From an uncultured Anaerolineae bacterium (GTDB taxonomy: Bacteria; Chloroflexota; Anaerolineae; CG2-30-64-16), in NCBI GenBank assembly GCA_937124585.1, contig CAKZKT010000144.1, forward strand, positions 1 to 64,000: a stretch of DNA of 64,000 bases. The letters run 5' to 3'. Of this stretch, positions 10,167 to 13,988 are shown one piece after another; positions within the stretch are counted from its first letter, which is position 1; every line of letters begins with the position of its first letter. A program made the position numbers and the translations under genes. The notes below the pieces were generated by a model, which was not told the origin of the DNA, made no database searches, and saw only the letters and a list, made by a program, of their open reading frames with translations.

Positions 10167-12002
10167 CTAGATGATCTCCAGATCCTTCAGCTTGCTCTCC
10201 GGCACGACGCCATCCACCCAGCCGCGCGCCTCATAGTACTCGGCCAGCATCTTGTCCAGCTCGCAGACATGGCCTGTGGAGCCCTGCATCGTGGACGGCT
10301 CTTCCAGGAAGCGCTTGGGCAGGGTGTCATCCTTGCCGGTGAAGCCGGCGAGATTGTTGTAGTGGCGCTCCAGATTGTAGACCCGCTCGCCGACTTTCAT
10401 CAGGTAATCGGCCGTGCAGGGCGCGCCGGTGATGGCGGCGAACTGCATGGCGTAGCCCTCCATGGACTCGGCGAAGGTGGAGAACTTGCACACATCCAGG
10501 CAGTCGGTGAGGGCGTGCACGTTCTGGAACACGACCAGCAGCTTGCCCTTGCCCTCCCAGGCCAGCGGGTCAACCGTAGAGGCCGGGCCGAGCACGTTGC
10601 CCGCGATCTCGGCGGCCGGGGTGTAGCCGCGCAGATGGCACGCGCCACGATTCGAGGTGGCATAACCGATGCCCATGCCTTTGAGGCCACGCGGGTCATA
10701 GGCCGGGATGCCCTGATCTTTGACCGCCATGGCCAGCTCGGGATGGCCGAGCTTCTTGGCCGCTTTGCCGGTGCCCTCGGCTAGGATGTCGCCAATACCC
10801 TCGCGGTATGCGATCTTGCGCATCATCTCGACCATGCCGTGCGTATCGCCCCAGGCCAGGCCATCGCCATTGGCATAGCCGCGCTGGGTGTATTCCATGT
10901 ACATGGCCAGGACGACGCCAATCTCGATGGCATCATAGCCGTAGTCATTGGCGCGATCGATCATGTAGGCGATGGCGCCGACATCGTCATTGTCGCACAT
11001 GGCGCCCAGCGACCAGGCCGACTCGTACTCGACACTCTCCATGTGCACCTTGAACGGCCCCTCTTTGATCTCCACCTCTTTCTTGCAGGCCACCGGGCAG
11101 GCGTGACAGGTGGGGTCGTTCACCAACACGTTGGCTTTGACGTACTCGCCGCTGATCCGCTCGGCCTTTTCGCCGAACGAGGTTACCTGGCCGTTGCGCG
11201 TGGGCAGCGCGCCCATGTTGCTGGTGATGTTCATGAGCACGTTCGTGCCGTAGACCGAAAGCCCGCCCTTGCGCGGTGCGGTGAGCACCCGCTCGTCCAT
11301 CAGCTCGGCCAGGGCGCGCTTCTGCGCCTCTTTCCAGCCCTCTTTGTCCACAGGCCGCGGCCGGTTCGCATGCTCGCCCTTGATCACGATCGCCTTCAGG
11401 TGCTTGCTGCCGCCGACGCAGCCCGTGCCGCCGCGGCCCGAGGCGCGATCGTCCTCGTTCATCCAGTTGGCGAATTTCACCAGGTGCTCGCCGGCCGGAC
11501 CGATGGTGATGACGCTGAGGTCCTTCGGCCCACCATGCCGCTCCTGCAGGATTTTGACCGTCTCGTGCACGGTCTTGCCCCACAGGTCGCTGGCATCGTG
11601 CAGCGTCACCTGGCCGTTCTCCACATAGGCGTAGACCGGCTTCTCGGCCTTGCCTTTGAAGACCAGGCCGTCGAAGCCCGCCCATTTAAGCCGGGCCGCC
11701 GACCAGCCGCCATGATGGGAATCGGTCACGGTGCCGGTCAGGGGCGATTTGGTAACGACGGCCATGCGGCCGCTCAGGTTGACGTCGGTGCCGGTGAGCG
11801 GCCCGTTCATGAAGCAGAGAATGTTGTCCGGCGACAGAGGATCCACTTGCGGCCCGTTGTCGAAGACGTACTTGACGCCCAGGCCACGCGCGCCGATGTA
11901 CTTGCGCGCGTCTTCTTCGGCAATCGGCTTGTACTCGATCTGCCCGGTGGTCAGATCAATCCAGGCCACTCGATTCGCATACCCGCCCAGTTGCATATGC
12001 AC
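10167..12002 (-). CDS. aldehyde ferredoxin oxidoreductase family protein (tungsto/molybdopterin)
   Basis: GGYANRVAWIDLTTGQIEY; SGRMAVVTKSPLTGTVTDSHHGG; CHACPVACKKEVEI cluster ligands; TDCLDVCKF. Confidence 0.93.
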   Translation of the reverse strand: MHMQLGGYANRVAWIDLTTGQIEYKPIAEEDARKYIGARGLGVKYVFDNGPQVDPLSPDNILCFMNGPLTGTDVNLSGRMAVVTKSPLTGTVTDSHHGGWSAARLKWAGFDGLVFKGKAEKPVYAYVENGQVTLHDASDLWGKTVHETVKILQERHGGPKDLSVITIGPAGEHLVKFANWMNEDDRASGRGGTGCVGGSKHLKAIVIKGEHANRPRPVDKEGWKEAQKRALAELMDERVLTAPRKGGLSVYGTNVLMNITSNMGALPTRNGQVTSFGEKAERISGEYVKANVLVNDPTCHACPVACKKEVEIKEGPFKVHMESVEYESAWSLGAMCDNDDVGAIAYMIDRANDYGYDAIEIGVVLAMYMEYTQRGYANGDGLAWGDTHGMVEMMRKIAYREGIGDILAEGTGKAAKKLGHPELAMAVKDQGIPAYDPRGLKGMGIGYATSNRGACHLRGYTPAAEIAGNVLGPASTVDPLAWEGKGKLLVVFQNVHALTDCLDVCKFSTFAESMEGYAMQFAAITGAPCTADYLMKVGERVYNLERHYNNLAGFTGKDDTLPKRFLEEPSTMQGSTGHVCELDKMLAEYYEARGWVDGVVPESKLKDLEII

Positions 12003-12051
12003 CTCCTCGTGTGATGTGGATGGAATGTGGCAGACGAATAGAAATGAAAAA

Positions 12052-12090
12052 CGGCGGATCGTTATATCCTATAGATATAACGATCCGCCG
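12052..12090. promoter_or_regulatory. perfect 16-bp inverted repeat upstream of AOR: ModE-like operator or terminator/attenuator
   Basis: cggcggatcgttatat-cctatag-atataacgatccgccg; half-sites CGTTATAT/ATATAACG resemble ModE sites; on minus strand the stem is followed by TTTTT. Confidence 0.75.
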
Positions 12091-12358
12091 CCACGATTCT
12101 GATCCGAAGCTACGTCAATCCGACTTCGGCGCCTTGTAGCCGCTATTCCGGCTGAGAACGGCCACGGTCTCACGGTATTCCTCCGGCGCGAAGCATCTGA
12201 CCGAAAAAGAGCAGGCGAGAATGATTCTACATGATTTCCCCGTGGCGCGCAAATCGCGCCGAGCAGCGGCTACGGCGCCAAGCCGGCGGTTGTGGCGCTA
12301 TCGCCCGCACGCCGAGCGATGGCCGCAAGAAAAATCCCCTCCCCCCGAACAATCGCCG

Positions 12359-12730
12359 TTATTCCGGGCCGCCAAAGGCATCGGCGAAAAGGCGGGCAAT
12401 GGCCGCGTCGGCCGCGGCCGCAAAACGCCGAAAACGCGCCAGATAGTCTTGCCCGGCTGCGGTCAGCTGCGCCGAGCCGCCCTTCACGCCCCCGCGCTGT
12501 CGTTCCACCAGCCGCACCCCCAGCGCCTGTTCCATCTCATCCAGCCGATGCCAGGCGAGCGTGTAGGTGATTTGCATCTGCGCGGCCGCGGCGCGAATCG
12601 AACCGGTCTCGGCGATTGCCGCCAGCAGCTCGGCGCGCCACCGGCTCAACGCAACCCGGCCGTTGACCTCCAGCCACAGATTGGCGTGGACGGCGAGAGA
12701 TCGGGGTGGATGGTTATCGGACGACGTCAT
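12359..12730 (-). CDS. ModE-type HTH (LysR-like winged helix) regulator without molbindin domains
   Basis: RAELLAAIAETGSIRAAAAQMQITYTLAWHRLDEMEQALGVRLVERQRGGVKGGSAQLTAAGQDYL aligns with the ModE N-terminal HTH. Confidence 0.85.
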   Translation of the reverse strand: MTSSDNHPPRSLAVHANLWLEVNGRVALSRWRAELLAAIAETGSIRAAAAQMQITYTLAWHRLDEMEQALGVRLVERQRGGVKGGSAQLTAAGQDYLARFRRFAAAADAAIARLFADAFGGPE

Positions 12731-12752: not shown

Positions 12753-13988
12753 TTACGGGCACCGGATCACTCCCTGCGCCCACAGACAGCCCCCGCAGGT
12801 CGGAAACGAGTTGCCGAAGCAGTCTTCCTGGTTGGACAGGCTGTAGTCACAGCCGCCGCAGAAGGTGCAGGGCGAGAAGGTGAAAGCCCGCACGCGGCGA
12901 CGAAAGGCGATGTGGTCGGCCGCGTACCACAGATCGGCCAGGGAACGGTCGGCCAGATTGCCGACGACGTAGGGCCGACTGCGGCGCTCGCGATCGTTCA
13001 GGTAACTGGTGTGCTCGTGCAGCAGCGGCAAGCAGGGGCTGAAACCGCCATCCCAGCGAATGGCGGCCGCACCGGCGTCAATGAACGGGCAGCGGTTGTT
13101 GGCATCCCCCAGGTTGTGTCCGCCCAGGCTGATGTTGTGATGGCTGCGCAGCACCTGGTACAGCATCGGCGCCGTTTCCTCGTCCACGTCCATCCTGGGC
13201 AGGTCCACATGGGGCGTCCACAGCGAAGGCAGGTAGGCGATGTCGGTCAGCGCGCGGCCGTACAGGATCTCACCCCGCATCTCCTCCGTGTAGGGCAGGA
13301 GATTGGTCACCAGAAAACGGTTGGCGCCCAGATGGCTGCCCAGGCTGAGCAGCTGCGGCAGGTCGCCGATATTGCGTCGCATGGCCACGAACGCGATCCC
13401 GATCTCCGGCCGACGCAGGTGCGCCGGCGGCCGCAGCGCGCTGAAACGGCTGAGATTGGACAGCACCGTGGGCAGGGCAGCGCCCAGACGAACGTCAGCA
13501 TAGCTCTCCGGCCGCGCGCCGTCCAGCGATACCCACAGCCGATCCAGACCGGCCGCGATCAGGCGCCTGGCCATCATCTCGTCCAGCAGGACGCCGTTGG
13601 TGATCAGCTCGGCCCCACAGCCAAGCGCCTTCACCGCGGCCACCATCTCGACGATACGCCGATGCGAGAGCGGTTCGCCAAAGCCCCCGAAGCAGACGGT
13701 TGGCCGGGGCGTGAATGCGGCCAGTCCGACCAGCACGGCCGCAAACGTGGCATCGCTCATGTGGCCGAGCGATTCATTCCAGACGTTGCGGACACAGATG
13801 CGACATGCCAGGTTGCAACAGGAGGTCGGCTCGACGTAGAGCCGTGCCAGGTGTGTCACCGGCCGGCGCAGGCGCAGCGTGCCGGCCTCCTCCTCCACCT
13901 CGACCGTCGTGCCCGCAGCCAGCCCGAAACGCGCGGCGACCTCGGCCGCCAGCACCAACCGGCCATTTTCGTCAATGGATGGGGTCAA
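12753..13988 (-). CDS. radical SAM/SPASM protein with AbrB-like N-terminus; tungsten-cofactor oxidoreductase maturase-like
   Basis: N-terminal IDENGRLVLAAEVAARFGLAAGTTVEVEEEAGTLRLRR; CCNLACRIC rSAM motif; Cys-rich tail CTFCGGCDYSLSNQEDCFGNSFPTCGGCLWAQG; next to AOR. Confidence 0.85.
   Translation of the reverse strand: MTPSIDENGRLVLAAEVAARFGLAAGTTVEVEEEAGTLRLRRPVTHLARLYVEPTSCCNLACRICVRNVWNESLGHMSDATFAAVLVGLAAFTPRPTVCFGGFGEPLSHRRIVEMVAAVKALGCGAELITNGVLLDEMMARRLIAAGLDRLWVSLDGARPESYADVRLGAALPTVLSNLSRFSALRPPAHLRRPEIGIAFVAMRRNIGDLPQLLSLGSHLGANRFLVTNLLPYTEEMRGEILYGRALTDIAYLPSLWTPHVDLPRMDVDEETAPMLYQVLRSHHNISLGGHNLGDANNRCPFIDAGAAAIRWDGGFSPCLPLLHEHTSYLNDRERRSRPYVVGNLADRSLADLWYAADHIAFRRRVRAFTFSPCTFCGGCDYSLSNQEDCFGNSFPTCGGCLWAQGVIRCP

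What the first reader, a model, noticed from the sequence alone, without database searches (positions are those of the whole stretch)
12052..12090. 39-bp perfect inverted repeat 50 bp upstream of AOR: operator or attenuator?
cggcggatcgttatat-cctatag-atataacgatccgccg. The AT-rich inner half-sites (CGTTATAT/ATATAACG) look like ModE operators as I recall them, but total spacing is about 1 bp shorter. On the minus strand the stem runs into TTTTT, so it could also act as a terminator/attenuator ahead of AOR. Little room remains between it and the ATG for a separate promoter, which mildly favours an operator overlapping the AOR promoter.
Basis: partly seen in the sequence, partly recalled or inferred. 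Interest (0 to 1): 0.65.

Follow-up and report, generated by a model that had tools for sequence, protein, structure and literature searches.

The report
Tungsten-gene switch: operator inside a terminator
The inverted repeat is a conserved control element in one class of Chloroflexota: a ModE-type (molybdenum/tungsten regulator) binding palindrome built into the stem of a transcription terminator in the leader of tungsten-enzyme genes, while the same palindrome, without the terminator, sits at the start site of tungstate-uptake genes.

Summary
The 39-bp inverted repeat at 12052-12090 is real and is the strongest hairpin in the window. It is neither a plain operator over the AOR promoter nor a plain terminator. 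In AOR sense it is a near-ideal intrinsic terminator (stem plus TTTTT), about 135 nt downstream of a good sigma70 promoter (TTGCGC-N17-TAGAAT, 12224-12252). The inner 23 bp is a ModE-type palindrome, CGYTATRY-N7-RYATARCG, one base shorter than the E. coli box. I found the element in 29 enzyme leaders from the class: AORs, AOR paralogues and one formate dehydrogenase. There the core is nearly fixed, the outer stem changes by compensating substitutions, and a T-tract follows. At tungstate-transporter genes (wtpA, tupA) the box occurs without outer stem or T-tract; at three wtpA genes it lies 5-7 nt after a -10 box. One genome (G025) carries both arrangements. Genomes with the box nearly always encode a short stand-alone ModE-like protein (16 of 18, against 58 of 378 without; p=6e-11). 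In this window it is the gene just upstream. A sister genome lacking that gene has the same AOR promoter type but no hairpin. Best reading: a leader terminator gated by the ModE-like protein. Direction and physical mechanism are inferred, not shown.

The parts
12052..12090 (-). Terminator-type hairpin in the AOR leader, 17-bp perfect arms and 5-nt loop
12060..12082 (-). ModE-type box CGTTATAT-N7-ATATAACG, the inner part of the hairpin
   Evidence: consensus from PMC2700814
12047..12051 (-). T-tract (TTTTT) after the stem, AOR sense
12247..12252 (-). Predicted -35 box TTGCGC
   Evidence: same TTGCGC-N17-TATAAT/TAGAAT promoter in L030, L068, L069
12224..12229 (-). Predicted -10 box TAGAAT, 17-bp spacer; start site expected near 12217
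11997..12217 (-). Predicted 5' leader of AOR, about 220 nt, with the hairpin inside
   Evidence: inferred
12002..12007 (-). Ribosome-binding site AGGAGG of AOR
   Evidence: sequence
10167..12002 (-). AOR gene, tungsten aldehyde ferredoxin oxidoreductase family (likely ATG at 11996)
   Evidence: Pfam AFOR_N and AFOR_C
12359..12730 (-). Short stand-alone ModE-like HTH protein (123 aa), candidate regulator
   Evidence: TIGR00637 66.5 bits, below its 98.5 cut-off; profile matches ModE structures 2IJL, 1B9M, 1O7L
12753..13988 (-). Radical SAM/SPASM protein related to W-cofactor oxidoreductase maturases
   Evidence: TIGR04317 282 bits, below its 380 cut-off

Best explanation
The repeat is a composite control element in the 5' leader of AOR. 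Transcription starts about 135 nt upstream and must pass an intrinsic terminator before reaching AOR. The inner 23 bp of the terminator stem is the DNA recognition site of a short ModE-like protein, encoded next door in this family. At tungstate-uptake genes the same site lies at the transcription start, where a bound protein would block initiation. In enzyme leaders it lies within the terminator, so the protein's binding would decide whether polymerase reads into the W-enzyme gene. Shown by comparison: the conserved box, compensatory outer stem, directional T-tract, upstream promoter, transporter sites and co-occurrence with the ModE-like gene. Inferred: that this protein binds the box, that the hairpin terminates in vivo, and the sense of control. 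My guess is that bound, tungsten-replete protein shuts uptake and favours read-through into AOR.
For: (1) A strict scan of 396 genomes of the class found 19 boxes in 18 genomes, against 2 for the reversed control. Thirteen lie in front of AOR genes, one at tupA and one at wtpA. Of 12 genomes not used to derive the pattern, 9 had the box at such a gene. (2) In 29 enzyme leaders, outer-stem Watson-Crick pairs number 157, against 87.7 +/- 6.6 in 5000 column shuffles, while the core is nearly invariant. T-rich sequence follows the stem (mean 5.3 of 6), with no matching A-tract before it (3.2). (3) Transporter sites lack outer stem and T-tract; at three wtpA genes the site starts 5-7 nt after a -10 box. 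G025 has both types. (4) Promoter upstream of the hairpin, not between it and the ATG. (5) ModE-like protein in 16 of 18 box genomes; the two without are the two whose boxes adjoin no Mo/W gene. In the window's own family, 7 genomes have both and 3 neither. (6) Sister genome G003 lacks the protein and has a TAGAAT promoter leading to AOR with no hairpin. (7) The two genomes with CGTTATAT boxes share a changed recognition helix (Y[TD]LAWHR).
Against: No expression, termination or binding data. The ModE-like protein lacks the molybdate-binding domain, so how it would sense metal is unknown. How a DNA-bound dimer would change termination is unclear; simple roadblocking would act in the same direction as the terminator. 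In 6 of 23 leaders no significant upstream promoter was found. The recognition-helix correlation may be a single evolutionary event.
Confidence: 0.72

Rival explanations
1. Plain intrinsic terminator; the ModE resemblance is incidental.
For: Strong stem plus T-tract in AOR sense; one box (L040) really is a terminator between convergent genes in a genome without the ModE-like protein.
Against: Core letters and N7 spacing are nearly fixed while the outer stem varies; the box occurs without a terminator at wtpA/tupA; co-occurrence with the ModE-like gene. In L116, L127 and L128 the nearest long upstream ORF is on the opposite strand, so the hairpin does not end an upstream gene there.
Confidence: 0.1
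2. Classical ModE operator overlapping or activating an AOR promoter between hairpin and ATG.
For: Box matches ModE consensus half-sites; in L013 a box-like site lies upstream of the promoter with no terminator.
Against: No significant promoter between hairpin and ATG in 21 of 23 leaders; none of TANNNT form in L030 by eye; the outer stem and T-tract would be unexplained.
Confidence: 0.08
3. Ligand- or RNA-based attenuator: the leader carries a clade-specific aptamer or leader peptide that sets an antiterminator.
For: Leaders of about 100-155 nt precede the terminator; L017 and L128 could encode short leader peptides; Moco/Tuco riboswitches use terminators in some genes (PMC2408646).
Against: No Rfam match; leaders are not unusually structured (mean z -0.60) and show no antiterminator pairing with the 5' arm (mean z +0.37). 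Does not explain the box or the link to the ModE-like gene.
Confidence: 0.1

Closest known systems
E. coli-type ModE operator (consensus ATCGCTATATA-N6-TATATAACGAT, PMC2700814)
   Same: Same palindromic half-sites, found at Mo/W transporter and enzyme genes; at wtpA it lies at the predicted start site.
   Different: One base shorter (N7, kept across nearly all sites compared), usually CGYTATG rather than CGYTATA, and in enzyme leaders part of a terminator stem far downstream of the promoter.
Moco/Tuco riboswitch leaders (RF01055; PMC2408646)
   Same: Leader-level control of Mo/W cofactor genes, some with intrinsic terminators.
   Different: No aptamer match here; the conserved part is the terminator's own inner stem.
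Stand-alone ModE N-domain regulators (PDB 2IJL, 135 aa, best profile match)
   Same: Short HTH protein of the ModE family with no metal-binding domain seen.
   Different: Adjacent to AOR or tupA with a box between; function untested.
Protein-controlled attenuators and roadblock repressors in general (from memory)
   Same: A protein decides whether polymerase passes a leader site.
   Different: In those I recall, the protein binds leader RNA, or DNA without a terminator; here the DNA palindrome and the terminator stem are one sequence. No paper describing this turned up.

Membership tests
ModE operator | Palindrome CGNTATAT / ATATANCG | tested here: met
   Window site matches exactly; most relatives carry G for A at the seventh base
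ModE operator | Canonical spacing (N8 between these half-sites) | tested here: not met
   N7 at every site compared except L012 (N6)
ModE operator | Occurs at Mo/W transport or enzyme genes | tested here: met
   AOR, tupA, wtpA, fdhA:
ModE operator | Bound by a ModE protein | not testable with these tools
   Only co-occurrence and adjacency
ModE protein family | N-terminal ModE HTH domain | tested here: inconclusive
   TIGR00637 is the best model, but 66.5 bits is below its 98.5 cut-off; profile E=3e-17 to 2IJL and 1.7e-16 to ModE 1B9M
ModE protein family | C-terminal molybdate-binding domains of full-length ModE | tested here: not met
   123 aa, HTH only
Intrinsic terminator | Stable stem followed by a U-tract | tested here: met
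Leader attenuator | Promoter upstream and gene downstream of the terminator | tested here: met
   Predicted only: 17 of 23 leaders
Leader attenuator | Alternative antiterminator structure | tested here: not met
   Mean duplex z +0.37
Moco/Tuco riboswitch RF01055 | Match to the covariance model | tested here: not met

The most novel reading that the evidence does not exclude
One palindrome does two jobs: read as DNA it is the operator of a tungsten-responsive ModE-like protein, read as RNA it is the terminator stem. Protein binding at the DNA directly changes termination, giving opposite control of uptake genes (operator at the start site) and enzyme genes (operator in the leader terminator) with one regulator and one box.
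Probability: 0.4. Interest if true: 0.8.

Novelty: new variant of a known kind. Interest (0 to 1): 0.62.

Why it matters
Little seems to be published on how bacteria match tungsten-enzyme production to tungsten supply outside the model groups. This gives a defined candidate regulon (box, regulator, uptake and enzyme targets) in a largely uncultured class. It also suggests a simple route to opposite regulation: place the same operator at a start site to shut a gene, or inside a leader terminator to gate it. If the protein controls termination by sitting on the terminator's DNA, that would be an unusual mode of attenuation.

Tried and rejected
A pattern with N8 spacing in the own genome gave fewer hits than its control (37 v 49). 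Allowing one mismatch class-wide gave mostly chance matches, although inspecting its listed hits yielded more true sites. The own genome's tupA has no box. Rfam gave nothing. Other Chloroflexota classes: 1 box in 342 genomes, not near a Mo/W gene, so the element looks class-restricted. ModE-like genes are linked to AOR only in the window's own family, so linkage alone was not used as evidence. Plasmids: no match. Mobile element or REP repeat: rejected, single copy. Terminator of the upstream gene: rejected where the nearest long ORF points the other way.

Full report
Observation. The repeat CGGCGGATCGTTATATC-CTATA-GATATAACGATCCGCCG is at 12052-12090 as stated and is the longest perfect short-range inverted repeat of the window. 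Read on the - strand, the sense of AOR, it is a very stable hairpin (-33.6 kcal/mol, z -8.1) running into TTTTTCATTT. Gene order on that strand: a radical SAM protein of the W-oxidoreductase maturase type (13988-12753), a 123-aa ModE-like HTH protein (12730-12359), the repeat, then AOR.

Comparison of AOR leaders. Orthologues of this AOR in related genomes showed that the hairpin position, the T-tract and the inner palindrome recur while the surrounding sequence does not. Eighty AOR loci from named genomes, mostly Anaerolineae and Caldilineae, gave 17 candidates, all with N7 spacing. One of these, L121, has no T-tract, so I left it out of later counts.

Box as an independent motif. A strict pattern, CGYTATRT-N7-AYATARCG, run over 396 genomes of the class without reference to genes found 19 places in 18 genomes, against 2 for the reversed control. 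Thirteen are in front of AOR genes, one between a ModE-like gene and a tupA-like gene (L035), and one 28 bp before a wtpA that passes NCBIfam's cut-off (L049). Two more sit just after a -10 box in front of a gene cut by the contig end (L050, L158). Two adjoin no Mo/W gene (L039, L040). Looser hits added two more ModE-like / box / tupA loci (L154, L157), a second wtpA (L147), a group of AOR paralogues (L148-L150), and a formate dehydrogenase with an in-frame TGA (L155). A scan of the wider phylum found one box in 342 genomes of other classes, and two further sites in G025.

Two architectures. In 29 enzyme leaders the box is extended by an outer stem whose letters vary but pair: 157 Watson-Crick pairs against 87.7 +/- 6.6 in column shuffles, none of 5000 reaching it. 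The core columns hardly vary. The shuffles ignore relatedness, but pair types differ across families (for example AAACGG/CCGTTT, AACAG/CTGTT, GCCGCGG/CCGCGGC, GTAAGC/GCTTAC), so independent compensatory change is evident. T-tracts follow the stem on the gene's sense side; the mirror A-tract is not enriched. At five transporter sites outer pairing is low and T-richness mostly absent. Three wtpA sites begin 5-7 nt after a good -10 box, the place of a classical repressor site. Genome G025 carries both forms: the plain site at wtpA (L195) and the hairpin with T-tract before an AOR paralogue (L194).

Promoter. A position-restricted promoter search found significant sigma70 promoters 90-215 nt upstream of the box in 17 of 23 leaders, and between hairpin and ATG in 2 of 23. 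Where significant promoters were found, hairpin leaders put the -10 box 234-284 nt before the start codon; leaders without the hairpin mostly put it under 130 nt. The hairpin is therefore predicted to be in the transcribed leader, not over the promoter.

Regulator. A profile of the ModE-like proteins (A2) finds a relative in 74 of 396 genomes. Of the 18 box genomes 16 have one, against 58 of 378 others (Fisher p 5.9e-11); genomes are not independent, so this p-value is optimistic. The two exceptions are the two genomes whose boxes adjoin no Mo/W gene. In the window's own family seven genomes have both and three neither. One of these three, G003, keeps an 88%-identical AOR fragment behind a TTGCAA-N17-TAGAAT promoter with no hairpin. 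Within the box genomes, CGTTATAT boxes go with recognition-helix Y[TD]LAWHR and CGYTATG boxes with Y[RHQ].AW; this could be one event. The profile matches ModE structures (2IJL, 1B9M, 1O7L), but the protein has only the HTH part and scores below the NCBIfam ModE cut-off.

Mechanism. I take the element to be a leader terminator whose stem core is the DNA site of the ModE-like protein. I looked for the usual alternative, an antiterminator or aptamer, and found no general signal and no Rfam match. If one regulator sensibly controls both uptake and use, it should shut wtpA when tungsten is plentiful and let AOR be made. That would require bound protein to favour read-through. This last step is reasoning, not evidence; bound protein could instead act as a roadblock.

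Known and new. ModE boxes, stand-alone ModE HTH proteins, intrinsic terminators and Moco riboswitches are known. The N7 box of this class, and its fusion with a leader terminator at enzyme genes but not at transporter genes, are what I could not find described; the paper library held is partial.

Noticed in passing
L155 (genome G303, contig C4), box at 1462-1484, - strand: A formate dehydrogenase gene with an in-frame TGA (likely selenocysteine) has the same box-in-terminator leader, so the element is not limited to the AOR family.
   Followed up: partly
L013 (genome G030), about 1230-1340: AOR leader with a box-like palindrome (CGTTATCT-N7-GCATAACG) upstream of the promoter and no T-tract: a third arrangement, perhaps activation.
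   Followed up: no
L012 and genome G039: AOR leader hairpin with a box of N6 spacing; the only ModE-like match in that genome is weak and carries a TGA.
   Followed up: no
L015 leader; L017 and L128 leaders: Short leader ORFs, one Cys-rich (MDFRLQVDPQCGRCLTSTCPKAVCSG...), that run up to or overlap the hairpin; possible leader peptides.
   Followed up: no
window 12753-13988 (-): The radical SAM maturase appears to begin with about 45 residues resembling an AbrB/MraZ-type domain, by eye only.
   Followed up: no
own genome G000: Ten AOR-family matches in this genome; only the one in the window has the box, and the genome's tupA has none.
   Followed up: partly
L050 and L158 (genomes G025, G148): Box 6-7 nt after a -10 box in front of a gene cut off by the contig end, starting MKRVPKVFL; probably a third class of target.
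   Followed up: no
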